Shown piece by piece: positions 5,988 to 36,896 of a DNA stretch of 40,174 nucleotides. The position numbers were made by a program, and so were the translations under genes. The first letter of the stretch is position 1; every line of letters begins with the position of its first letter. Where the stretch lies: the NCBI GenBank assembly GCA_024239075.1, contig JANBVI010000061.1, positions 1 through 40,174 of the forward strand. Reading direction: 5' to 3'. The notes under the pieces were generated by a model. That model saw only the letters and a list, made by a program, of their open reading frames with translations, ran no database searches and was not told the origin of the DNA. The stretch is from Fischerella sp. CENA71. Lineage in GTDB: Bacteria > Cyanobacteriota > Cyanobacteriia > Cyanobacteriales > Nostocaceae.

Positions 5988-6002
5988 AATTAGTTTTAAT
6001 AG

Positions 6003-9776: not shown

Positions 9777-9890
9777 AGCTAGGAAAACAGTTTGGTTTAC
9801 TCGTTAACGCTTATAAGTTTGGGTAAATTTAGATATTTGATTTTTACGGGATTACTTTAGTACTCATTATCTCTGAGTATTTGCTTACTA

Positions 9891-14621: not shown

Positions 14622-14678
14622 CGATTATGATCGCTAATCAGACAATACTGAAGAATCTGTTGATACAACGATTCGCCT

Positions 14679-16229: not shown

Positions 16230-16354
16230 AGGAGTTAGTCATTTAGCCTTCGTATGAAAAAATTTAAATGTCATTAAGAAAATTCGTGCTTCCCACCGGA
16301 AGCGACAGCTGGTACTACCTTAAGACATCCAATCATTGATACCAGAGAAATTTC

Positions 16355-16603
16355 TCAAAAAAAGTGAGACTGTTGATCAGATTTGCACCTGATTTTAGTA
16401 TTACGAACCTCAAGGCAATGTTCCGAGGTTATAAAGGCTGTTGAGGAGACTATAAAACTCCTTCCGGAAAAACCAGACCCAATTTTACTTGTCAATATTT
16501 TCCACAGAGTTACCAATTTAGAGCGTATCCACCCTGCCGATCCTTGTTCTACTAGTTCATAAATTTGGCGAAGATATTGTACTTCCAGTGTACTTATTTT
16601 CAT
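16355..16603 (-). CDS. Small hypothetical protein (82 aa)
   Basis: It starts at an ATG (MKISTLEVQYLRQIYELVEQ) and has a plausible helical N-terminal half, then a Ser-rich tail with two Cys residues. No family was recognised. It lies between the exporter and the dehydrogenase on the same strand. It could be a real small gene or the N-terminal stub of a longer one whose tail was replaced. Confidence 0.35.
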   Translation of the reverse strand: MKISTLEVQYLRQIYELVEQGSAGWIRSKLVTLWKILTSKIGSGFSGRSFIVSSTAFITSEHCLEVRNTKIRCKSDQQSHFF

Positions 16604-16682
16604 CCATAGTGCTGAACTGCAAGTTCATGAGCCACTAAACTTAGATTTTTTGCAAAACACCGAAATGACGACTCGTGGAGAC

Positions 16683-17375: not shown

Positions 17376-17593
17376 CAATTACCTCCACGGTTCTCAAGTA
17401 CCTGCACTTCACGGCCATTGTGCCAGTGTATTCCCCTGAAGAATTCGAAGTTCCAATCCATCTGTGCCGGTCTCGGCTGAGTATTGACGATGACCACCGG
17501 ACGACTTCTTTCCACATAGTTCTTCCGGAAAAAAGCTTCGCTCGGGTTCTCGATTCTATCGATTGCTGAACTACTTATAGTCGTTATAGTCAT
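17375..17593 (-). CDS. Short cupin/JmjC-like N-terminal ORF (72 aa), translationally coupled to the SDR
   Basis: The sequence SEAFFRKNYVERSRPVVIVN resembles the first strand-helix region of cupin_8/JmjC-like hydroxylases, which usually have about 280 aa and carry the HxD iron motif further on. That part is absent here. The stop overlaps the SDR start (TGATG) and the coding frame keeps a Shine-Dalgarno for the next gene. It may be a deletion relic whose 5' end was kept as a leader, or a true small protein. Confidence 0.5.
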   Translation of the reverse strand: MTITTISSSAIDRIENPSEAFFRKNYVERSRPVVIVNTQPRPAQMDWNFEFFRGIHWHNGREVQVLENRGGN

Positions 17594-17665
17594 TCTGAGA
17601 AACCTTTCCTTTGTGAATGGAGAGCAACCATAGCCCCAGAGCTATGCAAATAGTGCGTTTTTTCT

Positions 17666-17738
17666 TTAGAGTAATTCAAACTTATAAAGTTAGGGGCAGC
17701 AGATTTTTCGTTTTACCCTAACTTATAAATTACTCTAA
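17666..17738. repeat. 73-bp imperfect inverted repeat
   Basis: It starts TTAGAGTAATT and ends AATTACTCTAA, with inner arms CTTATAAAGTTAGGG and CCCTAACTTATAA around a short loop. It lies about 70 bp upstream of the cupin-like ORF and next to the group II intron end. It may be a small MITE or a regulatory hairpin. Confidence 0.55.
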
Positions 17739-17756
17739 CACGGGGGAAAAGTAACG

Positions 17757-18140
17757 GTGCGATGTAGAAGTTGAGTGTCAGAGGACTAAATAAATCCTCA
17801 TAAAGTGAGTGGAGAGCCGACTCTCAGGCGTGAAGTCTGTCTCACCGTCCCCAGGTAAAAGAGTCTCAAACTCCGGTCACGTTGGCAATAAGTAATGAAC
17901 CCAACGGAATGCAGACCACGAAAGAATCCCAACCTGATAGCATAAATCGGGGCGGGACTAGGGGAAAGTCCGGAAGGGTTAACAGCAGTGAACTGTTGAT
18001 GAAGCTTCGTCATTTTGCCAATAAGTGAAATCAGGCTGATACACTTCACTTAGACCAAAAGGTGCATGGGTGAATAAAAATAAGAATCAGCTTTGGGAGC
18101 AAGTTGAACCCCTAATAGGCGAGACCAGATGCGGCACTTT
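17757..18140 (+). mobile_element. Group II intron 5' part (domains I-III and start of domain IV), truncated
   Basis: It begins with the GUGYG consensus (GTGCGATG) and continues with blocks typical of cyanobacterial group II introns: GAGTGTCAGAGGAC, CTCAAACTCCGGTCACG, AATCCCAACCTGATAGCATA, GTTGATGAAGCTTCGTC and GGCTGATACACTTCACTTAG. An ORF start with MNKNKNQLWEQ follows at 18070 but stops matching anything intron-like by about 18140-18170, where the DNA becomes the 3' end of the fusion-protein gene. There is no reverse transcriptase, domain V or domain VI, so it cannot splice as it stands. Confidence 0.8.
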
Positions 18141-19502
18141 TGATTTTCGGGTAGGACAAGAACGATTAATTTTCTTTAAATTTACGCTGACAGTTGCTGA
18201 CATTCCAGGAGTAATCCTCAATTCATATCCTCGAATACTAGCTGAGTCAAATACTATTTTTACTGGGATACGTTGTACCACCTTAGTAAAGTTACCAGTG
18301 GCGTTATCAGGGGGTAATAAGGTAAACACCGCCCCTGAACCTGGTGAAAAACTATCTATGTATCCACTGAAGGAGTGATTAGGGAAGGCATCTAGCTTAA
18401 TTTTTACCATTTGCCCTGGCTGCATCCGTTTCAATTGAGTTTCTTTGAAGTTAGCAACTATCCAGTAGTTATTATCCACGATTACCATTAAGGATTGTCC
18501 TGTTTCGATCCTTTGTCCAGTTTTTACTGATTTGCGCCCTATCCTTCCCTGAACAGAACCTGTAATTTTAGTGTAGGTTAACTGTAGTTTCGCTTCTTCT
18601 AGATTAGCTTCTGCCAGATTGACATTAGCCTTTGCTGCCTCATACTCACTGAAGTTAATCGGGACTTGGAGATTGCCAGAGATAGTCTTCTGCAACTCTC
18701 CTTTAGAAGCAACCAAAGTAGCTTGCGCTTTGGTTACATTCTTAAGTGCTTGATTAAGCTTCGCTTGTGCTTGCATAACTTCCTGCTTAGCCAAATTTTT
18801 CTGAGCTTGAGCAACTTTATAGGCAGCGATAGCGCTATCCAACTGCTGATGAGAAATCGCGCCTGCTTTATATAAGTTGCTATAACGACGGTAATCAGCT
18901 TGTACTTTCTGCATATTGGCTTCTGCTTGAGCTAAGGTTGCTTGAGTAGCTAGCGTTCCGGCTTGTACTTCTTTGACTGCTGCTTGGGCGATTGAAACTT
19001 CTGCCATAGCACTTGAGACATTCCCTTTTGCCTGCTGTATGTCAGCCTCGGCATTTTGAGATATAAAATTAATCTTTGCCTGTGCAGCATCTGCTTGATA
19101 TCGAGCAGTTTGCAAAGACGCTAGGGCTTGCTGTACTTTACTTTGATATTCCTTTGTGTCTAGCTTCACTAGCAATTGATCTTTTTGCACTGTCTGGTTA
19201 TCGTCTACTAGTACTTCAACTACTGTGCCATTAATCCGACTACTGATAGGGTAAATGTTGCTTGTTACATAGGCATTATCAGTGCTTTCCTGTGTGAAAA
19301 TATACTGCCACAACTGATAACCAAAAATACCAAAAAAAACTGCACTTAAACCCAAAATTAATAGAGTCAAATCCCTCCATTTTTGATGTTTGGGTAAAGA
19401 AACTTTTTCTGGCTTCAACTCAGGTTGTAGCAATATTGGTTCCTCTGCTTTGGAACTAGTATCATTTGTCGTCATTGATGCTATTTTCCAGTTTAGTGTC
19501 AC
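18087..19502 (-). CDS. HlyD/EmrA-type membrane fusion protein
   Basis: The product is 471 aa. A cytoplasmic head is followed by one TM helix (about 50-70, LTLLILGLSAVFFGIFGY), the lipoyl half (STDNAYVTSNIYPISSRING), a long Ala/Gln-rich coiled coil (about 130-290), the second lipoyl half (LTYTKITGSVQGRIG) and the beta barrel (FSPGSGAVFTLLPPDN). It links the MFS pump to an outer-membrane channel. GTG at 19502 has AAAGGA four bases upstream; the ATG at 19475 is the alternative. The normal C terminus should end shortly after MSATVSVNLKKI; the last 25-35 residues (Ser/Arg/Cys-rich) come from antisense of intron DNA, so the gene's end was replaced but the core is intact. Confidence 0.9.
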   Translation of the reverse strand: MTLNWKIASMTTNDTSSKAEEPILLQPELKPEKVSLPKHQKWRDLTLLILGLSAVFFGIFGYQLWQYIFTQESTDNAYVTSNIYPISSRINGTVVEVLVDDNQTVQKDQLLVKLDTKEYQSKVQQALASLQTARYQADAAQAKINFISQNAEADIQQAKGNVSSAMAEVSIAQAAVKEVQAGTLATQATLAQAEANMQKVQADYRRYSNLYKAGAISHQQLDSAIAAYKVAQAQKNLAKQEVMQAQAKLNQALKNVTKAQATLVASKGELQKTISGNLQVPINFSEYEAAKANVNLAEANLEEAKLQLTYTKITGSVQGRIGRKSVKTGQRIETGQSLMVIVDNNYWIVANFKETQLKRMQPGQMVKIKLDAFPNHSFSGYIDSFSPGSGAVFTLLPPDNATGNFTKVVQRIPVKIVFDSASIRGYELRITPGMSATVSVNLKKINRSCPTRKSKVPHLVSPIRGSTCSQS

Positions 19503-19904
19503 ATAATCCTTTCTTTGCCAGTTTTATAAAATTGTAATAGCATGAGCTGATGTAGCAAGCAGGTACAATTTACGATGGTGTGCCACCATTGCGATTATCT
19601 TTACAAAGTACCCGCCATCGCTTAGATAATTTTATTACAGAATAATTGGTTAGCTCTGGGATGAGACGTAACAAAATTTATGGCATATTACTAAAAATTA
19701 TTATTCACTTATCAGTTCTAGAGCGTCTAAGCCGAAGCGCATTCAGAGTGAAAAAGCACTGTTCCAAAACTTATCCATTAATGCAACAACCTTCTGACCT
19801 ACTATGTCAAATTGTTGTGATAGCGTGATTGATTTGGAAGCGATCACTCTTATCTTACTTAGTGCCATTCTACTAAAAGATAAAGGACAGAAGCAGGGGT
19901 ATCC

Positions 19905-19927
19905 AAATGTGCCAAATTGGCACATTT
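19905..19927. promoter_or_regulatory. Perfect 23-bp palindrome, operator-like
   Basis: AAATGTGCCAA and TTGGCACATTT flank a central A. A near-loopless palindrome of this size in an intergenic region is typical of a dimeric regulator site. It is 400 bp upstream of the HlyD-type gene. No regulator gene is adjacent. Confidence 0.4.
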
Positions 19928-20295
19928 AAATTAATGGGTTAAGGATCTGATTTTAGACTAAGGCATGAGGCGCAACGTAGAAAGTATGGCATCCGTGTTT
20001 TGGTCGAAAACCGTGATAATATTCGCTAAATTGATAATTTGTGGACTAGTAAGATTCCGAATTGGGGCACTCACTTATATTACCACTAGAAATACACGCG
20101 AGTGCATGAGCTAAAATTAGGGCACATCACCATATATTTTGTCTTGTTCTCTACAAAAAATATCTCAAATCATTATTTGCTGTATAGACTAGCTAATTCA
20201 CAATCTTACATTTTCACCCGAAGAGCTAGCCACATAAAGGCTTTGATATAATTATCGGAGATATATAATAAGCTTCTAGTATGAAACGAATTACT

Positions 20296-20329
20296 TTTTA
20301 GATATCTATCCAAAGATAGATATCTAAAA
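20296..20329. repeat. Perfect hairpin with 15-bp stem and CAAA loop
   Basis: TTTTAGATATCTATC pairs with GATAGATATCTAAAA. The A/T-flanked stem could act as a bidirectional terminator or be a small dyad element. Confidence 0.45.
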
Positions 20330-20373
20330 GGGTAGCAAAAAGAATATAAATTAGACTAGACCTCTTGCATAAA

Positions 20374-20530
20374 TCAAGAAAAGAGAGCTAGTTCGTAGTT
20401 GAGAAGTCCAGCAATCAGATTGCATCGTAAACCAAAGCGTTTTCTGCGATTACAATGTTGTTGTTTGAGGATGTGAAAAATCAACAAGAAGGCGGTAGAT
20501 GTATTCGCCAACAACAGGTAGTTGAGCTAA
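20374..20530 (-). pseudogene. IS5-family transposase C-terminal remnant, second copy
   Basis: The minus strand encodes HILKQQHCNRRKRF, GLRCNLIAGLLNYELALFS and a stop, nearly the same C terminus as at 6017, followed by the same IS end (tagacctcttgcat). The two are direct repeats about 14 kb apart. Confidence 0.75.
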
Positions 20531-21126
20531 CAAGAGTGGATGTGTAGCTATAAGAATGAATTTTAGTGATTCCCTAATAGCCTTTATCAGCTAGACACAG
20601 CTGCGTTAGCGAAGCTCCTTTGAAAGAGGCTCGCTCAAAACGGATATTTGTATTTTTGAGTAAGCGTGCACTCATGAATGCGACCAACCCCATAGGCTGT
20701 TTAGGTTTCAAAAACTTAATATATGGTTCTCTAAAAATAATGCCCAGCCGTTTTCTCCAAATCCTCGCCGCCAAAGGCGTAAACCCAATATACGGCACTT
20801 GCAATTATTTATGAGTAAGTGCTTATAAGAGTTCAGGGAGGGTAGTTGGCAAGAGGTATATTGGAACGAGAACATTACAATTATGAAGAAGCAATTGCCC
20901 TAACAACCTAAGTTTAGCAAGCCACACAAGCACAATTAGTCGCAAATCTGATAGGTGGTTGGGTGAAAAAGAGCAACCAAATACCCACGCTGATTAAACT
21001 TCTTGGTTGGTCAAGGACGTCAAAAAATAGCTGTAAGTTGTTGCAAATCAAATGCAAATCAATAATTTTTGCTTATTTCACGCGGCATTATGCAACAAGT
21101 ACGAATAGTGGTGATATTTTCGTGAT
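20531..21126. other. Gene debris between the IS5 and IS66-like remnants
   Basis: No intact gene is seen. A segment at about 20865-20970 reads like protein-coding sequence on the plus strand (HYNYEEAIALTT, then QATQAQLVANLIGGWV) with in-frame stops, so it is probably an unrecognised decayed gene. GC-rich short repeats with Nostoc-like character occur around 20600-20790. Confidence 0.35.
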
Positions 21127-21210
21127 CATCCAGAATTTCCTAAACGAAGTAACTTAGCGGAGCGGTCATTGCGATTGGTGGTGACCAAATATAAAGCCAG
21201 TGGTAGGTGA
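21127..21210 (+). pseudogene. IS66-like transposase fragment
   Basis: The frame HPEFPKRSNLAERSLRLVV followed by TKYKASGG matches the end of IS66-type transposases (NNxAERALRxxVxxRKxSGG). Only about 28 codons remain, immediately upstream of the NRPS gene. Confidence 0.5.
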
Positions 21211-21240
21211 ATTTTATACAAATTATAACCAAGCACTTAA

Positions 21241-23712
<2,472 letters not shown>

Positions 23713-24037: not shown

Positions 24038-25106
24038 TTATGCAGCAACAGATTCTATTGGTAACCGCTCATCCATATCCAAATTAAAAGTACCGTAGGG
24101 GTTAACATGACCCCAAATTAATGGCGAAAGCGCTCGCAAATCCTCCTGCTTCATCGACTTCATCCATTCAGGTTGCGATCAAACTTGCTGAATCATCAAG
24201 GTATTAATATACACCAACGAAATCTGCAATAAGTGCAGTGATAACACAGCCAATTCTTGGTCTTCTAAACGATTCGTCGCAATCGTAGCGAATGTGCCAC
24301 TCAGTCATTAAATTTTGATCCCAAGCACCAAATTTTTTGGAGTCAGAAGCACAAGCAGTCGTCCCCTCTCCCCAAATTTGGGGCATTCTAATATCGAAAA
24401 TAGCATTGGCAATGCTAGCAATGGCATTACGTAACTGTTCTTTATGAATAAAACGACGTTTGACATACAATAAATCGTGGTAATTTCCGCCAGCAGTACC
24501 ACTGCTTAAACGTTTTAATCCCGTATTAGGTAATCCTCTATCTAACATTTCAAGAGCATCGTTCAGTTGTTTCTGTAAGTCAGAAATAAATAACTCGACA
24601 TCAGATGGTTGTTTGAGGGCTTGGAAATAAAACGTGCGTTGCTCATCAAAATCTGTTGGTAAATCCTCTTCTGGATTACGATAGCGGTTTGCTCCCACTA
24701 CCCAGATTTCTTTACATCTAAGCTTATCTCTTAAAGCTTGAAGTACGCTTAATTCATAATTAATGCGATTAACTTTAATTTCACCATCGCTTTCGGTTTC
24801 TAGAATTAATTCTTGCCAACCAGGACGTAAAATTCCTTCAATTGGTATACTTTCTCCAACATCATAATAACGCTGTTTACTGTCAGCATACTTCTTGAGT
24901 AATTCAATAGCCTCAATTACTGGACGATGTATCTCGTTATTTGAACGAAACTCTAATTGATTTAAAATTAAAGGTAATATCTGGCGATAATGTCTACCAT
25001 AAGAACTACGCATCACCGTATATACTTTTTCACGGTAAGCATTTCCTGTTGATTTATATTCTTTTACCAAATTCTTAAGTGTCTCTTCGCTGACAACCAA
25101 ACTCAA
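24038..25106 (-). pseudogene. Tn3-family transposase (TnpA) relic
   Basis: The first 290 codons read a contiguous middle part of Tnp[34 protein letters not shown] and the first catalytic aspartate in [16 protein letters not shown]. Directly after EWHIRY a large deletion joins to the far C terminus, in another frame: [20 protein letters not shown] then [10 protein letters not shown], a stop, and finally SPLIWGHVNPYGTFNLDMDE to a stop at 24038. The N-terminal third and most of the DDE domain are absent (about 990 aa in intact TnpA). It is dead. No Tn3 resolvase or GGGG-type 38-bp ends were found nearby. Confidence 0.88.
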
Positions 25107-26660: not shown

Positions 26661-29600
26661 TTAACTAGAAGCAATTCTCTGCTGAATCTCCAACGCTAGC
26701 GTGTTTTGAAAATCAGCAAGTTTCTTGAGAAGATTTTTAAATGCATTAAAGGAATCATTATGCTGACGTAGCTTTGATTCCTGATATCGCCAACAAACGT
26801 CAAGCAGAGATGCTAAATTTTTTTGAATGTTGTCCTCAGTCCAAAAGTGATCATTAGATTGGCTAGCAGTATAAAGCCAGGTGAGGCTATCAATGCGAAG
26901 TTCCTCAGCAGCTGGCTTCAACAGAAATGCCACAAAATGCAACGCACACCCTGGTTTATCCAAGTGTTGTCTAGCCCATTTCTCGTAAATTTTATGCATT
27001 TGCTTGATAATCGGCTTATGAGCTATTGCCCACATATTGTTAATACTGGAGTTTAAGCCTACTAAATAACACCATAACTCCTCTAAACCGTACTGGCGGA
27101 GTCTTGGGTCAAACTCCCAATTGGGTGAAGAGAATGCAAAATCTACCATTGCATGACATTCTTGAATAAATCTGTCAGAAATAGGTTCAGAATTAAGGCC
27201 AGTAATAAACCACTCCGTCAGAAATTTTTCAATCCAGTGATTCTCTTCCATTCCTAAACTAAGGATTGGCTTCCAAAAATCCTCCGGTTTTTCTGTAGTG
27301 GGCAATTGCAAAATTAAGGGAGCAAGATGCTGAGAAAGCCACTCATTCCAAGTACTAAGTGTTCGGTCTTTCTCAGGAAATTGAAGAGAATATTTGAGCG
27401 ATTCTTTCCAAAACGTAATCCATTCTTGACGCTCAGTTCTACTGATTGCCTGATCTAGTGAAGGTAGCCAAGCATAGGCAGCTTGAATTAGCCTAAAACT
27501 TAAGCGAGGAAATTGGCTAGGTGTGATATCTCCAAAGAAACTAGGTTGGCTGTAATTTTGGTGAGGTTTCTTGTCTGCTAGTTCTTCCCAAACTTGGGTT
27601 GCTACTTCTTCCCAACTAGGTAGATTAGGAGAAATGAGCTTGTCCAAAAAAGCTTTTATTTCTCGATGTCGTTCAACCTCGATATCAAATGAGGATTCCA
27701 AACCATAACGAGTGCTATCCCACTTCCATCTTACTGCTGCCCAACGAAAAAGTAGATGTTGGAGTCGCTTAAAGTCTTCATAAAAAGAACTCCTAAATTT
27801 GGCAACATAAGCAAAGACAGTACTGACAACTGCATAGCGCGAGCTTGTAACCAACAACACTACACATTCTCGCCATTTATTAGAGTCTGAAAATTTAGAC
27901 CAAATAAGTGGGATTACTTGGGCACAGAAAACATCCCACTCCAATTCCATACTGCTTTCTTCATGACCAAATTTGCTCCCTTTTGGAGGGTCGTGGATAA
28001 TTTTGATAAGTTGCTCAAAGCACCATTGTTCTTTTTCTGGATATTTTTGAAGCCAGTTCCAATGCAACTGAATAAGAACGGCTATGCCTCCACAAATACT
28101 GTTCTCAATGTCATATAATCCAGACCCATCTTCCACAGATGGAAATCCAGCCATTTGTTGAAGGATATTCCAAAACTTCTCAAGCTGTTCATCTTGTAGT
28201 GGTTGACCTGCATTAAGGATTTCTCTACAACGAAAAGGAAAAGACAAAATTTTTATCCGACGCTCAGAGTCTTCTCTAAAAGCTTTTTCCTTCTCGCTTA
28301 ATTTGTTAGGAGCTTGAAATACCCAAAAATCACCATGCTCAGGGTAATTCTGAATTCTGTAATTATCAATGTTGTACCCGTCAACAAGTTCCTCTAAAAA
28401 CCATTTTAGTTCATCTTCTTTGGAATTTTCTTGAAGGCGTTTGAGCCAGTTTGAACGAATTTCCTCAAAAAAAGTTCGCATTTCTGGAATATTTAGGAAA
28501 AAGCTTTGTGACCATTTATACAAACCTTGTTTTCGGTGAGGTAGTTCGTACCACTCGCGAACTAATTTGATAATCTGCTCGTTTTGCCCCAACCAAGTTA
28601 TCGTGATAGTTATATCCGACCCAGACAAAGGTTGATGTCGGGATTCCCAAAGATAAAATTCAGGAACTGTAAGCAGCGACCGTAGAGGTTCTTGGACAAG
28701 AAAAGATGATTTGCGAGCTACTGCACTTAGCAATCCTGCAAATGCTACAGAATTAGAGCGTTGCAGGATTAACTCTATCGCATTATTAATTGGTTTATTT
28801 TCATCAATTTCGTTGTAAAGCCACTTTTCTAAGACCATCAAAGCCACAGTTACTGGATATGGACAAGAGTTATAGTTGCAGTACCAGTAATAGACGTTTT
28901 GATTACCAAGCCATCGATGTTCATTACCTGCTAGAGTAATCGATACATCAGGGACAGTTTGATTCTCACGTCGCCAAATATCTGCCCATCTTTCTGTTGC
29001 AAAGTTAATTAAGCGCAGGATTAATTCCAGTCCTTCTGTAGGCTGATGCTTAATGAAAAAAAGTAATGGCCCTTGAGTATAAAAGGGAGGATACCACTCT
29101 CTATCGCACGCAATTCCCAATTCTTGCCGATGGGCGCTCGGTTCTTCTATTAACAGGGCAAGAAGGACTTCGCGTGCAACGCTTGGGTTGGCAATAATTA
29201 GTGGATAGATAGCATCTGTTGTTAAGCAGACCTGGCGAAATGCAGAGTGTATTTTCTGACTAGGGCCGTCCGTCCAAGCAACGGGTTCCTGTTCCTCCTC
29301 ATCTCCGAATTCCCAGCTAAAGTTTCTGAAGATTATTGGATCTATTTCCTGCTCATCTATCCTTGACCAGGAGGATTCATCAAGTTCTAATTCATAGGTT
29401 CCATATTCTGGATCATCAATAATTCTTTTAATAAGAGGTTCGGATTGAGTTTCTGTTTCAGTCTTTTGTGCTGTGACTTCTTTCCTAGCACTAGCTTTTA
29501 GTGCAAAATTAGCTACACCGTCAGGAAGTTCATAAACTCCTGCAAGTGCAGCATGATAAATTTTTTTACTTAAATCATCTTTATCATAAAAAAATCTGCC

Positions 29601-31322
29601 AGCTTTTGTGGACTCTAAAAGTCTTTCAGCAGTGGCTAAAGCTAACTCGGCAGCTTCCCGGCGCAGTGGCCATTTTGTATCCAATCGTCGTAGCCATGTG
29701 TTTGCTATCTCTGCAATATATTCAGGTGCTAGTTCAATGACATCTGTTAAATGTCGGTGGAGAAACTGAAGTATTGGCAACCAATAGGGAATGTATGGAA
29801 TCCGTTGTATTGTAGCGGCCGTGGTTTCCAAGTCTGAATCAAGTTGGGAAGCAATGGCCAAAATCGCAGGATTAGGTAATGTGGCAATGAAAAGGAACCT
29901 GGCTAGTAACCGACGTAAAAACAAACCATCGTTTGCAGCTAAATCAGTCCAGATACGCTCTAAAAGTGGAAGTGGGTTGGCAGCGAAAACAACGGCTTCC
30001 AATAGTAAGTCCGAAGTTAAATCAGGAGTATTATCGTCTCCGCACAAAGAAACTAGTGCAGAGCGCCATTGTGCCGTATCTTCATTTTTCTCCAGAAGAT
30101 GAAGTCCGTAAAGCCTTACAGCGCGATGCCAAAGAGGAGAAGAGACTCGATGTTTAATATAGTCCCGTAGGTTGTTTTTTTGTCCTAAGAGAACTCGCTG
30201 CCTTGCCCAATCACCATAGAGATCATGACAAAAAGATAGGCACTCTTCTCGTTCTTGACAGAGGTGATCTCTAATTAAACTGTCTACTTGCGCTAAGTCA
30301 GAAATAGAAAATGCGTCAGTTGGCGTTTCAGCTTCCAAATTATCTGCCTGCTTTTCACCCAATGATTTTAGTAGACCAGCTCGCATTCTAGCATTGGGCT
30401 GTTTACAAACTTCTGTCTCCCAAAACCATTCAATCAAGTTAGATTCTCCAACCCACTGAGTAGTATCCACAGAGCCGCCAGTAGACAATTTTGTTGCTAG
30501 TAAGTCAAGGACTTTTGGCTTGAACAATAGGGACTGTAGTTGAGGTTGAAAATTTAAACGTTTCAAAGCAGGAAATGTTTCCCAAACTGGTTCAAAGTCA
30601 TTAATAGAAGGAGCGCCAACTTGAAGCATTTTCCAGTCTTCAGTCAAGACATTGGCGCGTGCCAAAAGCATTTGAACTCTGTTCCACTCTTCTAACTGGC
30701 AAGGAATAAGGAGTCGCCAAGGGCTGTCCTCCACATTTAGTCGAAGTGTATGAATTAGCACAGATAAATTCTGAAATGAAGCTTCCGAGAAGATGCGATC
30801 TAGTCCATCAATTACCACATAGACGCGAGGAGCAGAAACAGCAGCTAGAACATCTCGAAGCGGAGAAGATAACCCTAAACGATTCTGAAAAGATGAAAAG
30901 TCTGGAACATCAAAGCTGCTAGCCTTCCACCAGATGGTTTTGTTAGCATTCTGTTCTTTTTCAGCCCAAGATTTAGAAATTACAGTTTTTCCACAGCCTG
31001 AAGCCCCCAAAAGAACAACTACCTTGTTGTTCTCAAAAGCTGTTTCTATTGCTTCTAATTCTACTAGACGAGAAATAAAAATTTTATTACCAATTCTGTC
31101 TGGGATTATTGTGAGATTTTCTCTTGTTTGTTCTATAAGTTTTATCCAATCGGTTTGATAATTTGGAGAACTATTAGGATGAAAAATAAATTGAATCTGG
31201 ACATTACCATCACCGATTGCAGCCTGCATTCCACCACCTAATATGGAACTATCAGCCTGCTGCTTAATATTTGGCTCAGGCGAGGGTAGTGGACTAGATT
31301 CAGGTTGCTCTGACTGATTCAT
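26661..31322 (-). CDS. Giant STAND-type P-loop NTPase with N-terminal Gly/Gln motif
   Basis: The product is 1553 aa. Residues 29-44 (GGGMQAAIGDGNVQIQ) share a motif with the two upstream genes. The NTPase domain follows: Walker A GASGCGKT (106-113), Walker B VYVVIDGLD (167-175), then a helical region with conserved LxxLLFKPKVLDLLA. The remaining 1100 or so residues are Trp-rich and helical and look like a superstructure-forming sensor. No N-terminal nuclease, protease, TIR or TM effector is present. In STAND/NLR proteins of this plan, ligand binding at the C terminus drives oligomerisation and the short N-terminal motif recruits a separate effector. The start lies 12 bp after the stop of the 144-aa gene, so the two are an operon. 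The assignment to a STAND NTPase is strong; a defence role is inference. Confidence 0.85.
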   Translation of the reverse strand: MNQSEQPESSPLPSPEPNIKQQADSSILGGGMQAAIGDGNVQIQFIFHPNSSPNYQTDWIKLIEQTRENLTIIPDRIGNKIFISRLVELEAIETAFENNKVVVLLGASGCGKTVISKSWAEKEQNANKTIWWKASSFDVPDFSSFQNRLGLSSPLRDVLAAVSAPRVYVVIDGLDRIFSEASFQNLSVLIHTLRLNVEDSPWRLLIPCQLEEWNRVQMLLARANVLTEDWKMLQVGAPSINDFEPVWETFPALKRLNFQPQLQSLLFKPKVLDLLATKLSTGGSVDTTQWVGESNLIEWFWETEVCKQPNARMRAGLLKSLGEKQADNLEAETPTDAFSISDLAQVDSLIRDHLCQEREECLSFCHDLYGDWARQRVLLGQKNNLRDYIKHRVSSPLWHRAVRLYGLHLLEKNEDTAQWRSALVSLCGDDNTPDLTSDLLLEAVVFAANPLPLLERIWTDLAANDGLFLRRLLARFLFIATLPNPAILAIASQLDSDLETTAATIQRIPYIPYWLPILQFLHRHLTDVIELAPEYIAEIANTWLRRLDTKWPLRREAAELALATAERLLESTKAGRFFYDKDDLSKKIYHAALAGVYELPDGVANFALKASARKEVTAQKTETETQSEPLIKRIIDDPEYGTYELELDESSWSRIDEQEIDPIIFRNFSWEFGDEEEQEPVAWTDGPSQKIHSAFRQVCLTTDAIYPLIIANPSVAREVLLALLIEEPSAHRQELGIACDREWYPPFYTQGPLLFFIKHQPTEGLELILRLINFATERWADIWRRENQTVPDVSITLAGNEHRWLGNQNVYYWYCNYNSCPYPVTVALMVLEKWLYNEIDENKPINNAIELILQRSNSVAFAGLLSAVARKSSFLVQEPLRSLLTVPEFYLWESRHQPLSGSDITITITWLGQNEQIIKLVREWYELPHRKQGLYKWSQSFFLNIPEMRTFFEEIRSNWLKRLQENSKEDELKWFLEELVDGYNIDNYRIQNYPEHGDFWVFQAPNKLSEKEKAFREDSERRIKILSFPFRCREILNAGQPLQDEQLEKFWNILQQMAGFPSVEDGSGLYDIENSICGGIAVLIQLHWNWLQKYPEKEQWCFEQLIKIIHDPPKGSKFGHEESSMELEWDVFCAQVIPLIWSKFSDSNKWRECVVLLVTSSRYAVVSTVFAYVAKFRSSFYEDFKRLQHLLFRWAAVRWKWDSTRYGLESSFDIEVERHREIKAFLDKLISPNLPSWEEVATQVWEELADKKPHQNYSQPSFFGDITPSQFPRLSFRLIQAAYAWLPSLDQAISRTERQEWITFWKESLKYSLQFPEKDRTLSTWNEWLSQHLAPLILQLPTTEKPEDFWKPILSLGMEENHWIEKFLTEWFITGLNSEPISDRFIQECHAMVDFAFSSPNWEFDPRLRQYGLEELWCYLVGLNSSINNMWAIAHKPIIKQMHKIYEKWARQHLDKPGCALHFVAFLLKPAAEELRIDSLTWLYTASQSNDHFWTEDNIQKNLASLLDVCWRYQESKLRQHNDSFNAFKNLLKKLADFQNTLALEIQQRIASS

Positions 31323-31334
31323 TAGCTTATCTCA

Positions 31335-31769
31335 CTAGAATCCGAAGAAACTTTTAGCAACACCTAGCCAACCAGGTAGTTCCAGCAAAATTGGTTTGAC
31401 ATTCTCCCAAAGGTTTTTAGTTGATGCCACGCTTTCACTGGCAGTTTTCAGTGTTTCTGCCATCCGTTTGAGATTACCAGATGCCAGCTGTTTATCAGGT
31501 TCAGGAGCTTGAGCTTCTTCTTTAGCGGCTCCTAGATATTTGAGTGACTTTTCTTTAACTGCTTCTGGTAGTTCTGAGTTTGCACCTACTAATTGTTCTA
31601 TCTGCGCTAACATCCGAATTACATCTTCCTGATTTAGCTGTTTTTCACCAGATGCGACTACATTGGTCTCCATTGTTTGCTGGTTTTTGTCGCCCTGCGC
31701 CGTTTGCATACCACCGTACACATTACCGCCGCTTACATTTTGGGAAATTCCACCAGGATTATTAGTCAT
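31335..31769 (-). CDS. 144-aa helical protein with N-terminal Gly/Gln/Asn motif
   Basis: Residues 6-31 (GGISQNVSGGNVYGGMQTAQ and GDKNQQ) match residues 564-589 of the pentapeptide protein without gaps and also resemble the N terminus of the NTPase. The rest is two or three predicted helices (DVIRMLAQIEQLV, NLKRMAETLKTASESV) ending in a hydrophobic WLGVAKSFFGF. That end could insert into or associate with membranes. No enzymatic motif is seen. By position (12 bp before the NTPase) and motif, it may be an adaptor or effector for it. Confidence 0.75.
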   Translation of the reverse strand: MTNNPGGISQNVSGGNVYGGMQTAQGDKNQQTMETNVVASGEKQLNQEDVIRMLAQIEQLVGANSELPEAVKEKSLKYLGAAKEEAQAPEPDKQLASGNLKRMAETLKTASESVASTKNLWENVKPILLELPGWLGVAKSFFGF

Positions 31770-31941
31770 TATATTTATCTTGTCTACTTAGATGCTTGAA
31801 TAAAAATTGAGTATAGCTCACTAAGACAAATCCAGTGACGGTATCAGCTACATCAAAGCTCAGATTTTCACGGCTCAAGCCTTCGATAAATTTAAAGGCG
31901 ACGGGATTGGCGATCGCCCTGCGTGAGTTAGTTGTATCTTC

Positions 31942-32085
31942 CTAATTCCGTTTGAACTCCATCTGGGCGAAGTGATCTTGCAGCAATTTGTGGATGAAGC
32001 GGTAGCGACCACCTACACGCTGGAGGAATAATCGCTCGGTGCAGTAGTTGAGAAATCGGGCGTAGTTCCAATTGGTCTGGTGTTC
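31942..32085 (-). pseudogene. C-terminal remnant of a NACHT-type NTPase
   Basis: Between the 144-aa gene and the pentapeptide gene, the minus strand reads NWNYARFLNYCTERLFLQRV, GGRYRFIHKLLQDHFAQMEF and a stop at 31942. This is the characteristic end of large cyanobacterial NACHT/STAND proteins (RYRFIHRLLQEHFA). An in-frame stop at 32086 and the absence of anything before it show that only a tail remains. The rest of the gap 31770-31941 carries no gene. Confidence 0.7.
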
Positions 32086-32103
32086 CTAATTCAAGTTAAT
32101 AAT

Positions 32104-32586
32104 TTATTGATTGTTTTTATTCCAATCATCTAAAGCAGCAATGACAAAGCTGGCTGCGGGATGGCTGAGGGCTTGTTCTAGAGCCGCCGTACCACCAGCC
32201 CTCAACGCGCTGATTGTTTTGTGCATTAAAGTTGGGTTATTTTCGATGCGTTGCGTGGCTTCTGCTGCCAGTGCCATTTTTCCTGACATTGTTTCAGTAG
32301 GATAAGACTGGCTTAATTGCTCTAGCAATGCCTGAATTTCGGCTGCGGCTTCTGCAAGGGTTTGTTTTTGCTCTGATTGAGAAATATTTTGATTAAATAT
32401 TTGCTGACTGCCAGATTGAGCAGTGTCAACAAAGCCACCAATGTTTGCGTGACTTTGATCATATTTAGTTCTATAAGTTTCGTTACTCATATTTTGCTGA
32501 TTATTGTTACCTTGTGCTGCTTGCATTCCTCCCCCAATCTGGCTGTTATTTACGCTTTGGTTAATTCCACCTTGATTCGGATTCAT
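32104..32586 (-). CDS. Possible nested gene: stand-alone 160-aa motif protein from an internal start
   Basis: Met559 of the pentapeptide protein (ATG at 32586) is preceded by GAGGTAGG four bases upstream and begins MNPNQGGINQ, like MTNNPGGISQ of the 144-aa protein. Over 33 residues the two align without gaps with about 18 identities. An internal start would yield a separate motif protein. Not proven. Confidence 0.4.
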   Translation of the reverse strand: MNPNQGGINQSVNNSQIGGGMQAAQGNNNQQNMSNETYRTKYDQSHANIGGFVDTAQSGSQQIFNQNISQSEQKQTLAEAAAEIQALLEQLSQSYPTETMSGKMALAAEATQRIENNPTLMHKTISALRAGGTAALEQALSHPAASFVIAALDDWNKNNQ

Positions 32587-34260
32587 TGTACCTACCTCTT
32601 GTATTTGTGTACTTGAATAAAAATTAGGACGTTGTAACGCTTGAGTAACAAAATTTTCTAAACTACGAATTCTGTCATCTTTTTCTGCTATTAGGGCTTT
32701 TAATTCTTGCTCCGCTAACGCTTTAATTTGATGATAAATTTCAAAATATTCTGCACTCAGTTGGGACTTATCAGCCTTTGCTGCGGTTTTGGCACGAAGT
32801 AAAAATTTATCTTCACCTCGCACTTCCATACCGACAATTCGCAGGTCAGCTTCCGGGTGATTCTCTGCTAACTGCTTAAAGGAAATTGCGATCGCTCTGG
32901 GGTCAACGCCTTGGTTATGGTAAAGGTCGAGGGTGTCAAAAATTGGCTTAATGAAATCTCCAAACTCACCATCTGCAAAGACCTCCTGCCTGTTATCCGG
33001 TTTCCGATAGGGGTCTGGGTTATCTGTTGTGGGGAGTCGCATATAAACGTATTCACACCGCACACCATCAAATTTGGTATCAGTGGTAATACCCCAATCT
33101 TGAATGTAAGCTCCTGTGAGAGTAGCTCCTGTTAAATCAGTTCCATTAAGTTGTGTTTGTACTAATTTCGCCCTGGTTAAGTCTGCATCTTGCAAGTTAG
33201 CTTGGCTCAGATCTGCACCAATAAAACTTGCATCTACTAAGTTGGCTCCTTGAAAATTGACTCCTCGCAAATCTTCACGGTCAAAGTTTTTTTCTTGTCC
33301 TTGACCTGTAACCAGCACTTGACGCATTTGTGATTTTTGCAGGTAAGTTTTTCCTGGGCGTACACAGATCAGCATTTTAACTTGCTTGAAACAAGTACGA
33401 ATAAGAATAGCATCTCGGAAATCACTCCTTTCGAGATTTGCGTTGCGGAAATCAGCATCAGTTAAATTAGCTTTGCGGAAGCTAGTCCCACCTTTAGTAA
33501 TAAAGCTAACTAAAAAATTCCGAAAAAAAACATTTTGCTGTTCATTCTTAATGATGCTTCTTGCCAGATAATCAATTAACAAAGCTGCTATCGCAGCTAC
33601 TATTAAAGCTACTGTAATTCCACCAAATGCTACTGATTTTGGCGTAGCTAATACTGCTGCCATCACTGCTGTTGTTGGTGCTGCTACCACTGTTGCTATT
33701 ACAGTTTTCTTATCTTTTATAGTTAGGCTGGTAGCTACGGTCACGATAACTACAATAAAACCTAGCTCTATAGCTGTAATTGCTCCAGCTACGCCTACTG
33801 ACAATGCTCCTAATGAATCTTGTGCTTTTAGCCAAATTGCAAGAAATGTGCCTATTATTGCTCCTACTAGCGTACCTATAATAGAAACAGAAACTACAGC
33901 AAAACCTAAACCTTTTTTATCAATAGTAAAAGACAAACTCGCAATTATAATTAAAGCTAGGACACCTGGAATAATACTGTAATAATAATTTTTTTTAATA
34001 AAAAAGAAATCTGTAATCCAAATACCAGGAAAGGCGGCAGTAAATCCTCCTAGAAAGGATAGCAGTAATAAGATAATTTTTAAAAAAACCTCCCTATGCT
34101 TTGGCAACCCAGCTGTAGCACCATTAAAAAATGCTCCCTTTAAATTAGCAGCAGTAAAATCTGCCCCTCGGATATCTGCACCACTAAAAATTGCCCTCTC
34201 AAGGTTTTGATTTTTGAAAGAACGACCTCTGAGATTTTGACCGGAGAAATCCTGGAACAT
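32104..34260 (-). CDS. Pentapeptide-repeat multi-TM protein with C-terminal Gly/Gln motif module
   Basis: The product is 718 aa. Pentapeptide repeats (A(D/N)LxX) occupy about 1-50, with about six TM helices at 57-231, and further repeats at about 255-290 and 325-395, interrupted by a block without the pattern. A conserved soluble region (about 405-500), a coiled-coil stretch and, from 559, a module like the 144-aa protein follow: motif 564-589 and a helical domain ending WNKNNQ. The start is the ATG at 34260 (MFQDFSGQNLRGRSFKNQNL). Pentapeptide proteins of this build are common in filamentous cyanobacteria, usually without known function. As a membrane protein with the shared motif it may be the effector of the NTPase. 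Confidence 0.82.
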   Translation of the reverse strand: MFQDFSGQNLRGRSFKNQNLERAIFSGADIRGADFTAANLKGAFFNGATAGLPKHREVFLKIILLLLSFLGGFTAAFPGIWITDFFFIKKNYYYSIIPGVLALIIIASLSFTIDKKGLGFAVVSVSIIGTLVGAIIGTFLAIWLKAQDSLGALSVGVAGAITAIELGFIVVIVTVATSLTIKDKKTVIATVVAAPTTAVMAAVLATPKSVAFGGITVALIVAAIAALLIDYLARSIIKNEQQNVFFRNFLVSFITKGGTSFRKANLTDADFRNANLERSDFRDAILIRTCFKQVKMLICVRPGKTYLQKSQMRQVLVTGQGQEKNFDREDLRGVNFQGANLVDASFIGADLSQANLQDADLTRAKLVQTQLNGTDLTGATLTGAYIQDWGITTDTKFDGVRCEYVYMRLPTTDNPDPYRKPDNRQEVFADGEFGDFIKPIFDTLDLYHNQGVDPRAIAISFKQLAENHPEADLRIVGMEVRGEDKFLLRAKTAAKADKSQLSAEYFEIYHQIKALAEQELKALIAEKDDRIRSLENFVTQALQRPNFYSSTQIQEVGTMNPNQGGINQSVNNSQIGGGMQAAQGNNNQQNMSNETYRTKYDQSHANIGGFVDTAQSGSQQIFNQNISQSEQKQTLAEAAAEIQALLEQLSQSYPTETMSGKMALAAEATQRIENNPTLMHKTISALRAGGTAALEQALSHPAASFVIAALDDWNKNNQ

Positions 34261-34590: not shown

Positions 34591-35742
34591 TCAAATTTGA
34601 TTGAGTTTGATAACACCGTCGCCTATCCAGTTGGCTAACCCTGCACCCACAATTTCATACATCCAGGCCTTGATTTGCTCAACAGTAAATCTTTCACCGT
34701 TCACTTTAAAGTTGCCCTTAAACTCTCTTACATCGGCTGTCATTCTCTCAGTTCGGGTGAGATATTCATACAACTTTTGCGCCATTGGTGATAGCTTATT
34801 TTTTTCATTTGGGGTATCACCAGTCTTGCCACCGAGATTAAATTCCAGTTCATAAATGCGTTCTAAAGTGGCTTTATCTATGGGTGGCGATTCATCAGAT
34901 TTCACCGATTTATGAACCCTAAAATCAATCCGCTTGTGGTCAAGTTTAGGTAGTTCAATTGGCAACCATTGACCATGCCCTGGTAGTTTAATTTTCCCCA
35001 TACCCGATGCTTTAGCCTCTGTAGTCACCGGGTCAATTTGTGCAATTAACTCAATCTCTAATAAAGCCGCATCCCTCAGTTTTGATAACCCTTTAGCTTT
35101 GGCTAGTATTTCCATCGTCCGGTCATGGGCGACAAACAAAGGAATCATTAATTGCTTGCGGCTTTCGGTCATGGCACAGCGAAACCATTTACCAATAAAA
35201 TCTGGGTCAGGTTTCCAGTTGTCGGGCGCAGAGAGTGGCATCGGCTCAATAATATGATCTGTCCATGTGGTGAACTCCTCACAAATCACCGATAACTGTT
35301 TCCCAGATGCCCTTAAATGCTGTGTCCATTGCTCCTCAGTCATGCCCGACTCACGGTAAGCAGCGTAGCGCAATCGCATCTCATCCATGTACCATTGCAT
35401 GAATAGGGCAATTTCCCTGTAGCCAGTAATCAGCCTTACCCCTCGCCATTCAACTTCAGTCCCGTGAGGGTCTAAAGCTACAACATCCCATCCGGCGTTT
35501 ACCTTCTGCCAGACAATCTCTCTAGTCGTCCACGACTTACCCGAACCCATACCCCCAAACAGTAAAGCAGGGTAGCCAATAGGGTTTTTCATCCATTGGT
35601 ATTTGTCAGAGTTGGCGATGACTGGCTGCTGTGCTTTCTCCTCCACTGTTCCCGGTTCACCGTGTGGTAGCTGTGCCTGGGGTGGGTGAAACTTATCGAA
35701 GCTTGCACCCCCATCTAGTAAATGCCCAAGGTTAGCTTTCAA
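34591..35742 (-). CDS. Plasmid P-loop ATPase (HerA/FtsK or transfer-type), divergent partner
   Basis: The product is 383 aa from a TTG at 35742 (MKANLGHLLDGG). Walker A is GGMGSGKSWT (63-72), Walker B-like LSVICEEF (about 150), with the strand ALDPHGTE between. The middle shows the arginine-rich and DPVTTEAKA region, and the C terminus is a winged-helix-like domain (VNGERFTVEQIKAWMYE). It pairs with the divergent ATPase gene 26 bp away, as in several cyanobacterial plasmids. It probably works on DNA: partitioning, transfer or segregation. The TTG start has no good Shine-Dalgarno; a later start is possible. Confidence 0.75.
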   Translation of the reverse strand: MKANLGHLLDGGASFDKFHPPQAQLPHGEPGTVEEKAQQPVIANSDKYQWMKNPIGYPALLFGGMGSGKSWTTREIVWQKVNAGWDVVALDPHGTEVEWRGVRLITGYREIALFMQWYMDEMRLRYAAYRESGMTEEQWTQHLRASGKQLSVICEEFTTWTDHIIEPMPLSAPDNWKPDPDFIGKWFRCAMTESRKQLMIPLFVAHDRTMEILAKAKGLSKLRDAALLEIELIAQIDPVTTEAKASGMGKIKLPGHGQWLPIELPKLDHKRIDFRVHKSVKSDESPPIDKATLERIYELEFNLGGKTGDTPNEKNKLSPMAQKLYEYLTRTERMTADVREFKGNFKVNGERFTVEQIKAWMYEIVGAGLANWIGDGVIKLNQI

Positions 35743-35755
35743 GTAGGGGTAATGT

Positions 35756-35788
35756 TAGGGTAGCTGCTATGAAGTGCCAACTACCCTA
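35756..35788. promoter_or_regulatory. Dyad between the divergent ATPase genes
   Basis: TAGGGTAG (35756-35763) and its exact complement (35781-35788) are centred on the ATG at 35769. The dyad spans the 26-bp divergent gap and the first codons. It may be the operator of both genes; if so, translation may begin at the later ATG at 35799. Confidence 0.4.
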
Positions 35789-36896
35789 CCATGTAGGCAT
35801 GTGGGCAGAAACAGGAGGTGGAAAGAGTACAGCGATTTCTAATGTGATTGGTGGCATGATTCAAGAATTAGGGGGAGCGCCAACAATAAGAACTACAATA
35901 CCCAAAATAGATGTAGACACAGCCAAAATATTCCCCCACGTTGACTGGCTGGGTGTTCCGAATTCTGTTTTTGGTTTGTTAGAAGCAGCGTTAGAGATTC
36001 AATACCGCATCCACGTCAATGAACAAGCGTTCTTAAAAGGGGAGGAGATAAAAGATTTTGACCCGATACTATTTTTCATAGATGAAATCAATTTAATATT
36101 TACCAGATGGAAGTCTATAAACGAAGCAGATTTAGAGAATGTTCTAGATCGCTTTGCAGACACTTTGTCAGGGGAAAGATTGGAATACTTCAATCGATTC
36201 ATGAGGATAGAGTTAGGCAATTACAAGCAGCAGTTTGCTAAGAAGTTGCTATTGTTCATCTGGCAGACGGGGCGAAGTCTCAGGGTGAAATCGTTGATAG
36301 CTGGTCAAAACCTTCAGCCAGGTAGTTTTGGGATGATGGTTAATGATTTGGCCAACTGTGCTTACATCAGTTTTGGTGACAGTATCAGGAGTTGCCAAAA
36401 ATACAAGGTTCGTGACGTTGATGCTGATTTAATTTCTAAAAATAGCAATCTCCTGCAAAAGGCACTAAAAACCAATCCACAGCTAAAATACACCGCTTTG
36501 TATTGTCCCACCCAAGGAGAAGCATTTTTTGGCACTCTTCCCCCTCCAAATTACTACGAATGGGATAAAGAATTAGTGCGTCCAAAACTGTCCAAACTGA
36601 TGTCCAATGGTGCGTCCAATTGGACAGAATCTAGAGAAAATGTCCAAGTGCGTCCAACGCCCGACAGATTACAGAATAAGGAATTTGGCGTTTTTAAGGA
36701 TGCGTCCAAGCTACCCTCTAAGTTTCAAAATCTGTCATATGAGGCATACCTCCAATTATGGCAGCGGCTACCCAAAAAGACAGACTCGTGCGTTCACAAA
36801 ATGTTGGCATATGAGCAAGTTTTTGAAGTGTCTCGCAGTAGCGATCGCAAAGTCGTCTCAGATTTTATTGATTGGTTGGAACGGAATTTTAGTTGA
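35769..36896 (+). CDS. Plasmid P-loop ATPase, full-length copy
   Basis: The product is 375 aa. Walker A is AETGGGKST (13-21) and Walker B ILFFIDEIN (100-108). Arg-Ser-rich and GQNLQPGSFGMM motifs follow in the sensor region, as in FtsK/HerA ATPases. The C-terminal domain (SYEAYLQLWQRLPKK) resembles a winged helix. It differs from the partial gene at 1-986 mainly in the linker. The start is the ATG at 35769, with the in-frame ATG at 35799 (MWAETGGGKST) as alternative. Together with its divergent neighbour it marks the plasmid backbone. Role in transfer or maintenance is inference. Confidence 0.8.
   Translation: MKCQLPYHVGMWAETGGGKSTAISNVIGGMIQELGGAPTIRTTIPKIDVDTAKIFPHVDWLGVPNSVFGLLEAALEIQYRIHVNEQAFLKGEEIKDFDPILFFIDEINLIFTRWKSINEADLENVLDRFADTLSGERLEYFNRFMRIELGNYKQQFAKKLLLFIWQTGRSLRVKSLIAGQNLQPGSFGMMVNDLANCAYISFGDSIRSCQKYKVRDVDADLISKNSNLLQKALKTNPQLKYTALYCPTQGEAFFGTLPPPNYYEWDKELVRPKLSKLMSNGASNWTESRENVQVRPTPDRLQNKEFGVFKDASKLPSKFQNLSYEAYLQLWQRLPKKTDSCVHKMLAYEQVFEVSRSSDRKVVSDFIDWLERNFS
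36580..36709. repeat. GTCCAA cluster inside the second ATPase copy
   Basis: Seven direct GTCCAA words and one TTGGAC lie within 130 bp, at the same place as the cluster at 670-845 although the encoded residues differ. See the finding on iteron-like words. Confidence 0.6.

What the first reader, a model, noticed from the sequence alone, without database searches (positions are those of the whole stretch)
26661..34260. Three-gene STAND NTPase cassette wired by a shared Gly/Gln/Asn motif, a possible amyloid-signalled defence or cell-death system
Seen: three minus-strand genes carry the same motif, roughly GG-(I/L)xxx...GGMQxAxGDxNxQ. It is at residues 564-589 of the pentapeptide membrane protein, 6-31 of the 144-aa protein and 29-44 of the 1553-aa NTPase. 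The latter two are only 12 bp apart. Known: bacterial NLR/STAND proteins with no N-terminal effector are often linked to separate effectors by short amyloid signalling motifs (BASS, RHIM-like), and filamentous cyanobacteria are rich in them. Inference: the giant NTPase senses an invader, oligomerises, and its motif templates the motif of the membrane protein and/or the 144-aa protein, which then acts at the membrane. A pentapeptide-repeat TM protein as a partner would be an unfamiliar effector.
Basis: partly seen in the sequence, partly recalled or inferred. Interest (0 to 1): 0.85.

Follow-up and report, generated by a model that had tools for sequence, protein, structure and literature searches.

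The report
Motif-matched sensor and effector gene pairs
A filamentous cyanobacterium carries giant sensor proteins and separate effector proteins that share a short matching motif, apparently the plug that lets a triggered sensor switch on its own partner, and related bacteria keep similar parts while changing both halves of the plug together.

Summary
In detail: all three genes carry one ~30-residue motif, and its profile finds no eighth place in this 7.5 Mb genome (7 hits at E<=10, in three clusters). The other two clusters are also effector + STAND pairs. At 50 deduplicated loci, picked for carrying the motif or a relative of the 144-aa protein, 94 motif ORFs include 36 effector->receptor pairs. 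The cassette is misread, though. Nostoc foliaceum has four genes, two pairs; here the pentapeptide protein's NACHT receptor is deleted, leaving a 129-bp remnant. The giant NTPase pairs with the 144-aa protein: motif disordered, tail a confident helical bundle. Five of nine scanned NTPase relatives have EAD10, PNP, caspase or TIR where this one has the motif. Related tails elsewhere follow other motifs, and the next gene tends to carry the matching one (61 tail ORFs, 0 of 20,000 permutations); the window's own pair shows no extra match. Motif-keyed coupling is well supported; amyloid templating and defence are inferred. It works like BASS/EAD systems; BASS-family membership could not be tested.

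The parts
26661..31322 (-). 1553-aa STAND-type NTPase (receptor): N-terminal motif, P-loop NTPase (Walker A at residue 106, Walker B region at 166), long variable C-terminal region
   Evidence: P-loop, nSTAND and NACHT matches, all below Pfam cut-offs; Avs4 E=1.2e-17, best stretch residues 77-178; residues 1-700 93-100% identical to two Nostocales copies, 701-1100 66-77%
31188..31280 (-). receptor-side motif, residues 15-45 of the NTPase
31335..31769 (-). 144-aa partner protein: motif followed by a helical tail (type A)
   Evidence: dN/dS 0.115 against Nostoc foliaceum
31662..31760 (-). effector-side motif, residues 4-36 of the 144-aa protein
31338..31640 (-). type A tail, residues 44-144, helical bundle; 98 of the 144 residues have pLDDT 90 or more
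   Evidence: a tail-only profile has matches in 23 of 214 genomes of the order
31942..32070 (-). 3' remnant (42 codons + stop) of a NACHT receptor gene that is complete in Nostoc foliaceum and Nostocales LEGE 11386; the rest, including its motif, is deleted
32104..34260 (-). 718-aa pentapeptide-repeat membrane protein (effector of the first module, its receptor lost here): pentapeptide repeats, hydrophobic helical stretch about residues 54-256, second pentapeptide block, motif, type B tail
   Evidence: (Pentapeptide 2.2e-32); model of low confidence (mean pLDDT 48.5; hydrophobic stretch below 50); no membrane predictor was run
32482..32577 (-). effector-side motif, residues 562-593 of the pentapeptide protein
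32107..32376 (-). type B tail, residues 629-718, related to the tail of the CHAT effector at C66:61415; modelled as four helices, pLDDT about 70-89

Best explanation
This is a pair of sensor/effector modules coupled by a homotypic motif. SHOWN: receptor-type proteins (NACHT, nSTAND1-WD40 or this 1553-aa NTPase; less often other proteins) carry the motif at the N-terminus; the gene upstream usually encodes a protein with the same motif followed by a helical tail, alone (the 144-aa protein) or behind a pentapeptide-membrane or CHAT domain. In related loci the motif can be a different sequence, and then both partners tend to have changed together. INFERRED: the variable C-terminal region of the NTPase recognises an invader; nucleotide-driven oligomerisation gathers several N-terminal motifs, which fold as a stacked beta-structure (most likely amyloid-like) and template the motif of the 144-aa protein; this clusters the helical tails, which act at the membrane or recruit a further effector, and the cell dies or stops growing. 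In this window module 2 (144-aa + NTPase) looks complete; module 1 has lost its receptor, so the pentapeptide protein is an orphan or is driven by another receptor with a similar motif.
For: Motif found only in three effector/receptor clusters in the genome. 36 adjacent effector->receptor pairs among 94 motif ORFs at 50 loci, 24 of the 36 no more than 20 bp apart; 28 loci in named cyanobacteria and motif hits in 4 of 5 genomes of the genus, the own one included. Slot argument: five of nine scanned homologues of the NTPase have EAD10 (67% identity over residues 35-647), PNP_UDP_1 (two), Peptidase_C14 or TIR_2 at the N-terminus. Co-swap: 61 tail-bearing ORFs match their own downstream neighbour better than shuffled neighbours, 0 of 20,000; in 15 hand-picked pairs spanning several motif types 0 of 100,000, own partner ranked first in 10 of 15; of nine of those partners scanned together seven are NACHT proteins. 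Tail folded, motif disordered as a monomer. Motif and NTPase core conserved, C-terminal region diverging. Four-gene relatives.
Against: No biochemical evidence of amyloid, oligomerisation or cell death. Fine-scale matching inside this motif family is weak: no within-pair signal among nine CHAT or tail/nSTAND1 pairs (p=0.47), and the window's own pair scores below its mean against unrelated partners and ranks 15 of 22, 31 of 61, 3 of 15. Some receptor-side partners are not STAND: DctP solute-binding proteins, a coiled-coil protein, a GUN4-ending protein, a TPR protein. 21 of 94 motif ORFs are unpaired; 14 of 75 tail ORFs have no downstream neighbour; in 24 loci found by the tail alone only nine show a motif match with z above 3. 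Gene order effector-first is partly a result of how I defined a pair; in L089 the receptor lies upstream of the effector, 2.4 kb away, and in L051 the two diverge. The tail fold gives no functional clue.
Confidence: 0.62

Rival explanations
1. The motif couples receptor and effector homotypically but not as amyloid: it is an EAD-like adaptor, a small discrete beta-structured assembly that forms once the STAND protein has oligomerised, in the sense of the effector-associated domains of Kaur et al. 2020.
For: The closest homologue of the NTPase listed has the Pfam domain EAD10 at this position. The architectural rule (one copy on the core protein, a second often on the adjacent effector gene) is the published EAD principle (PMC7159879, passages seen).
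Against: The motif is about 30 residues, rich in Gly, Gln and Asn, and disordered in the monomer models, which resembles signalling amyloids more than a folded domain (inference); tandem QGDNN repeats in related pairs suggest stacking (inference).
Confidence: 0.25
2. The motif and tail serve as a localisation or complex-assembly tag, for example a membrane scaffold, and the pairs are not a defence or death system.
For: Some partners are DctP-type solute-binding proteins or coiled-coil proteins instead of STAND receptors.
Against: Most identified partners are STAND receptors, effectors include caspase-like CHAT proteins, and the NTPase has a variable C-terminal region; homologues carry domains known from conflict systems; the tail resembles PADLOC candidate family PDC-M14B in 13 of 13 type A members, though in only 2 of 8 type B members.
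Confidence: 0.1
3. The shared motif is a relic of gene duplication and recombination with no present function.
For: The 144-aa gene has a decayed pentapeptide-gene flank upstream, so it looks like a fission product; the clusters occur in several genera and relatives of the 144-aa protein on plasmids; the window's own pair shows no pair-specific match.
Against: Strong constraint on the 144-aa protein (dN/dS 0.115); co-swap of different motifs in both partners while the tails stay related; outside the motif, receptor and effector have different domains.
Confidence: 0.03

Closest known systems
BASS (bacterial amyloid signalling sequences) with Bell proteins, Dyrka et al. 2020; known here only through the review PMC7889193 (section 9 and passages) and passages of PMC8086366, PMC9815663 and PMC12261475
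   Same: Short motif shared by the N-terminus of an NLR-type protein and the product of the adjacent gene; cyanobacteria; CHAT also reported as a BASS-bearing domain; partner domain alpha-helical.
   Different: In Bell proteins the motif is at the C-terminus behind the helical domain; here it comes before the helical tail, and longer effectors add a pentapeptide-membrane or CHAT domain in front. The BASS1-10 profiles were not available for comparison.
[quoted passage not shown] 2020 (PMC7159879, passages) and 2021 (PMC8195603, passages)
   Same: Same architectural logic; EAD10 sits in the same slot of the closest homologue listed.
   Different: The motif is about 30 residues and matches no Pfam model; the EADs are described as small domains.
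PADLOC candidate PDC-M14B
   Same: The end of the motif and the type A tail match positions 159-258 of its 267.
   Different: The first 158 positions are not covered; one paper search for its name gave no paper holding that name.
Avs4
   Same: The NTPase matches the PADLOC Avs4 model, E=1.2e-17.
   Different: The best stretch is only residues 77-178; no fused N-terminal effector domain; the C-terminal region was not tied to any Avs target.
Fungal NLR/effector amyloid signalosomes, including the PNP_UDP-linked motifs of PMC9815663 (passages)
   Same: Adjacent NLR and effector genes with a shared short motif; PNP_UDP domains occur as effectors there and fused to two homologues of this NTPase here.
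   Different: Different sequences and effectors, and here no experimental fibres.

Membership tests
BASS | shared short motif in products of adjacent genes, N-terminal in an NLR-type protein | tested here: met
   36 effector->receptor pairs; receptors NACHT, nSTAND1 and this NTPase
BASS | motif at the C-terminus of a Bell domain (the usual partner; CHAT and TIR partners are also reported) | tested here: not met
   motif lies N-terminal to the helical tail in the 144-aa protein and internal in the longer effectors
BASS | match to a profile of BASS1-10 | not testable with these tools
   the paper is not held and no profiles are held
BASS | amyloid fibres and seeding | not testable with these tools
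   needs peptides; the monomer models are disordered there
EAD | one copy on the core component, another on an effector, often of the adjacent gene | tested here: met
   rule as quoted
EAD | match to a described EAD model (Pfam) | tested here: not met
   no EAD model for any of the three window proteins at E<=1; EAD10 is found instead in homologue L156
STAND NTPase | P-loop NTPase with Walker A and B, related to NACHT/nSTAND | tested here: met
   Walker A at residue 106 and Walker B region at 166; ABC_tran, NPHP3_N, nSTAND_NTPase5, nSTAND3 and NACHT matches, all below their gathering cut-offs
Avs | match to an Avs model over its length, with its C-terminal sensor | tested here: inconclusive
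   Avs4 E=1.2e-17 with two stretches, best only residues 77-178
Bell/HeLo four-helix domain | structural relationship of the tail to HeLo/MLKL-type bundles | tested here: inconclusive
PDC-M14B | match over the whole model | tested here: not met
   only positions 159-258 of 267

The most novel reading that the evidence does not exclude
Cyanobacteria use an open-ended code of short stacking motifs as interchangeable keys. One helical effector tail and one set of NACHT/STAND receptors are re-keyed by exchanging the motif in both partners, giving several insulated sensor-effector pairs in one lineage, with pentapeptide-repeat membrane proteins as a new class of motif-triggered effector, and some effectors (L045/L222) carrying two keys in series so that two receptors can fire one effector.
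Probability: 0.35. Interest if true: 0.82.

Novelty: new variant of a known kind. Interest (0 to 1): 0.64.

Why it matters
If right, it adds a motif family and a pentapeptide-membrane effector to bacterial NLR signalling, and offers natural swap experiments (related tails and receptors, different motifs) that make the question of what sets specificity between signalling motifs directly testable. It also shows one genome holding three clusters with the same motif, where cross-talk or insulation can be measured.
Full report
WHAT IS THERE. The window is a whole 40,174-base contig (C61) of a 7.47 Mb genome. Other genomes of its genus are Fischerella: G391 has the contig length and coordinates of Fischerella sp. 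PCC 9431, G389 those of F. muscicola SAG 1427-1. Three minus-strand genes carry one motif: a 718-aa pentapeptide-repeat membrane protein, a 144-aa protein and a 1553-aa NTPase. The seven motif copies of this genome align without gaps over 33 columns. Receptor copies read roughly IxQQADNSTLGGGMQAAIGDDNIQIQ, effector copies roughly GGISQNVSGGNVYGGMQAAQGDNNQQTM (my paraphrase of the rows). At E<=10 the profile finds the seven and nothing else in the genome; as it was built from those seven, the result is the absence of others. Shuffled proteins and ORFs of 13 loci of NTPase homologues score at most 6.3 bits.

TWO MORE CLUSTERS IN THE SAME GENOME. At C66:8674-12984 a 709-aa pentapeptide-membrane protein ends in the motif plus a tail, 69% identical to the 144-aa protein, and is followed 12 bp later by a 722-aa NACHT protein with the motif. 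At C66:61415-66308 a CHAT caspase-like protein with the motif and the other tail type is followed, 268 bp later, by an nSTAND1-WD40 protein with the motif.

THE CASSETTE IS TWO MODULES, ONE BROKEN. In Nostoc foliaceum (L101) the order is pentapeptide protein, NACHT receptor, 144-aa protein, 1560-aa NTPase; in Nostocales LEGE 11386 (L102) the same four are present, but the pentapeptide gene is split into two ORFs. Alignment shows that in the window the NACHT gene is gone except for its last 42 codons and stop (31942-32070). The pentapeptide protein thus lacks its neighbour receptor here. Upstream of the 144-aa gene lies a stretch that resembles pentapeptide coding sequence but has a stop, so the gene looks like a fission product of a second pentapeptide-motif-tail gene (inference). 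Against L101 the 144-aa protein is under strong constraint (dN/dS 0.115); the NTPase (0.359) and the pentapeptide protein (0.334) less so. In the NTPase, residues 1-700 are 93-100% identical to the copies in L101 and L102 and residues 701-1100 only 66-77%, with 82-94% beyond residue 1100, as expected of a diverging sensor (inference).

DISTRIBUTION. Motif hits: 4 of 5 genomes of the genus, the own one included, at E<=0.01; 17 of 388 in the order; 6 of 388 in the class (an earlier seven-row profile at E<=0.05 gave 9 of 388). A scan of the GTDB species genomes with a six-row motif-plus-tail alignment gave 28 loci, all with cyanobacterial record titles; that they are filamentous is recalled. After removing nine duplicate loci, 94 motif ORFs at 50 loci give 37 adjacent couples, of which one (the window's pentapeptide and 144-aa genes) is not an effector-receptor pair, and 21 unpaired ORFs, some at contig ends or broken. 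The 36 pairs lie at 34 loci and 24 of them are no more than 20 bp apart. These loci were picked because they carry the motif or a relative of the 144-aa protein, and a pair was defined as effector first, so neither the number nor the order is a frequency estimate; L089 (receptor upstream, 2.4 kb away) and L051 (divergent) do not fit the definition. Three receptor ORFs of the 36 are short (84, 102 and 239 aa), the first two a split and a truncated gene. Identified receptors are NACHT, nSTAND1-WD40 and this NTPase; other receptor-side partners are DctP solute-binding proteins, a coiled-coil protein and a GUN4-ending protein. Effectors are pentapeptide-membrane, CHAT, CHAT plus DUF900 hydrolase (a weak, 20-bit motif copy), the tail with an unnamed domain, or the tail alone. 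Plasmid records: 16 match the 144-aa protein, all cyanobacterial; phages: none.

THE N-TERMINAL SLOT. A search of 378 genomes of the order found homologues of the NTPase at E<=1e-15 in 14, the own genome included. I fetched the other 13 and gave N-terminal pieces of nine to Pfam. L156 (67% identical over residues 35-647) has EAD10; L158 and L159 have PNP_UDP_1; L166 has a caspase domain; L167 has TIR_2. L157, L160, L161 and L168 have no named N-terminal domain at E<=0.01; L162, L163, L164 and L165 were not scanned. So five of nine carry a known effector or adaptor domain where this protein has the motif. Several of these are distant (21-26% identity), so the slot argument rests most on L156, L158 and L159 (35-67%).

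THE CO-SWAP. A profile of the type A tail without the motif has matches in 23 of 214 genomes of the order, 29 places in all. I fetched 24 of these places that I did not already hold and left out two weak, stop-bearing ones. In the 24, ten have no downstream ORF within 500 bp; of the other fourteen, nine begin with a stretch that matches the motif region before the tail at z above 3, for example SFTNSPISGQVGQGRDFTQ and NFDQSPVSGQAGQGRDFNQ in L204 (in L219 the z of 5.9 comes from another stretch and is not counted). Over all held loci, 75 ORFs bear a tail (59 type A, 16 type B) and 61 of them have a same-strand ORF within 400 bp downstream; their mean match to that neighbour is 56.7 against 44.6 (s.d. 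1.46) in 20,000 permutations, none as high. In 15 hand-picked pairs spanning several motif types the own partner ranks first in 10. Nine of those partners were given to Pfam: seven are NACHT proteins, one is nSTAND1-WD40 and one has TPR repeats. Against the reading: inside the present motif family matching is loose, and the window's own pair is not closer than mismatched pairs (ranks 31 of 61 and 3 of 15).

STRUCTURE. AlphaFold on 24 sequences gives the 144-aa protein mean pLDDT 80.3: the motif region (1-41) below 50, the tail (helices 47-63, 69-87, 93-113, 115-128, 132-135) mostly above 90. Structural matches are assorted helical bundles. The pentapeptide protein, on six sequences, gives a poor model (mean pLDDT 48.5): pentapeptide coil at residues 1-50 (about 77), helices at 54-256 (below 50), motif disordered (below 40), type B tail as four helices (about 70-89).

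MECHANISM. Shown: shared motif, adjacency, slot equivalence in part of the homologues, co-swap, folded tail. Inferred: oligomerisation on sensing, stacking of motifs, clustering of tails or effectors, membrane damage or proteolysis, and protection of the filament. The closest published descriptions are BASS/Bell (PMC7889193: passages, section 9; PMC8086366, PMC12261475 and PMC9815663: passages; Dyrka 2020 itself not seen) and the EAD principle (PMC7159879, passages; PMC8195603, passages). Motif order relative to the helical domain is the reverse of Bell proteins. I therefore call it a BASS-like or EAD-like variant, not a member.

VERDICT. Amyloid is the most likely but unproven physical basis.

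Noticed in passing
L045 4210-6495 / L222 2192-4477 (Fischerella sp. NIES-4106 plasmid2): One pentapeptide effector carries two motifs in series, the present one and a tandem QGDNN repeat; a pentapeptide effector with the QGDNN type sits 9 bp before a 267-aa gene with a matching repeat in Anabaena cylindrica pANACY.03 (L223).
   Followed up: partly
L091, L093, L114-L118: DctP-type solute-binding proteins (Pfam run on L091, L093 and L114; the others by resemblance) carry the receptor-side motif at the N-terminus and follow a 141- or 152-aa tail protein; an unexpected receptor or effector type.
   Followed up: partly
L224 (Acaryochloris marina plasmid pREC2) and L225 (Nostoc sp. HK-01 plasmid2): Tail protein + NACHT pairs with another shared motif (QIGGxAGxD) on plasmids, the first conjugative by PLSDB and in a cyanobacterium that is, as recalled, unicellular.
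   Followed up: partly
32104-34260 and pentapeptide effectors in other loci: A methionine codon stands just before the motif in the eleven pentapeptide effectors shown (searched with peptides that begin with it, so others were not counted; L226 lacks it); an internal start could yield a free motif-tail protein.
   Followed up: no
24204-25106: ORF with a partial Tn3 transposase DDE domain, a sign of mobile DNA near the cassette.
   Followed up: no
34591-36896: Two divergent ORFs beside the cassette; the first matches the HerA/DUF87 ATPase family below its cut-off, the second has no Pfam match at E<=1.
   Followed up: no
3607-23385: Possible biosynthetic genes: glycosyltransferase, peptide deformylase, methyltransferase, DegT aminotransferase, PhyH, aminotransferase, MFS, HlyD, and a formyltransferase with partial condensation and AMP-binding matches.
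   Followed up: no
L030 8517-9980 (= L121): The receptor-side gene is split into an 84-aa motif ORF and a 383-aa coiled-coil ORF, compared with one 456-aa gene in L032.
   Followed up: no
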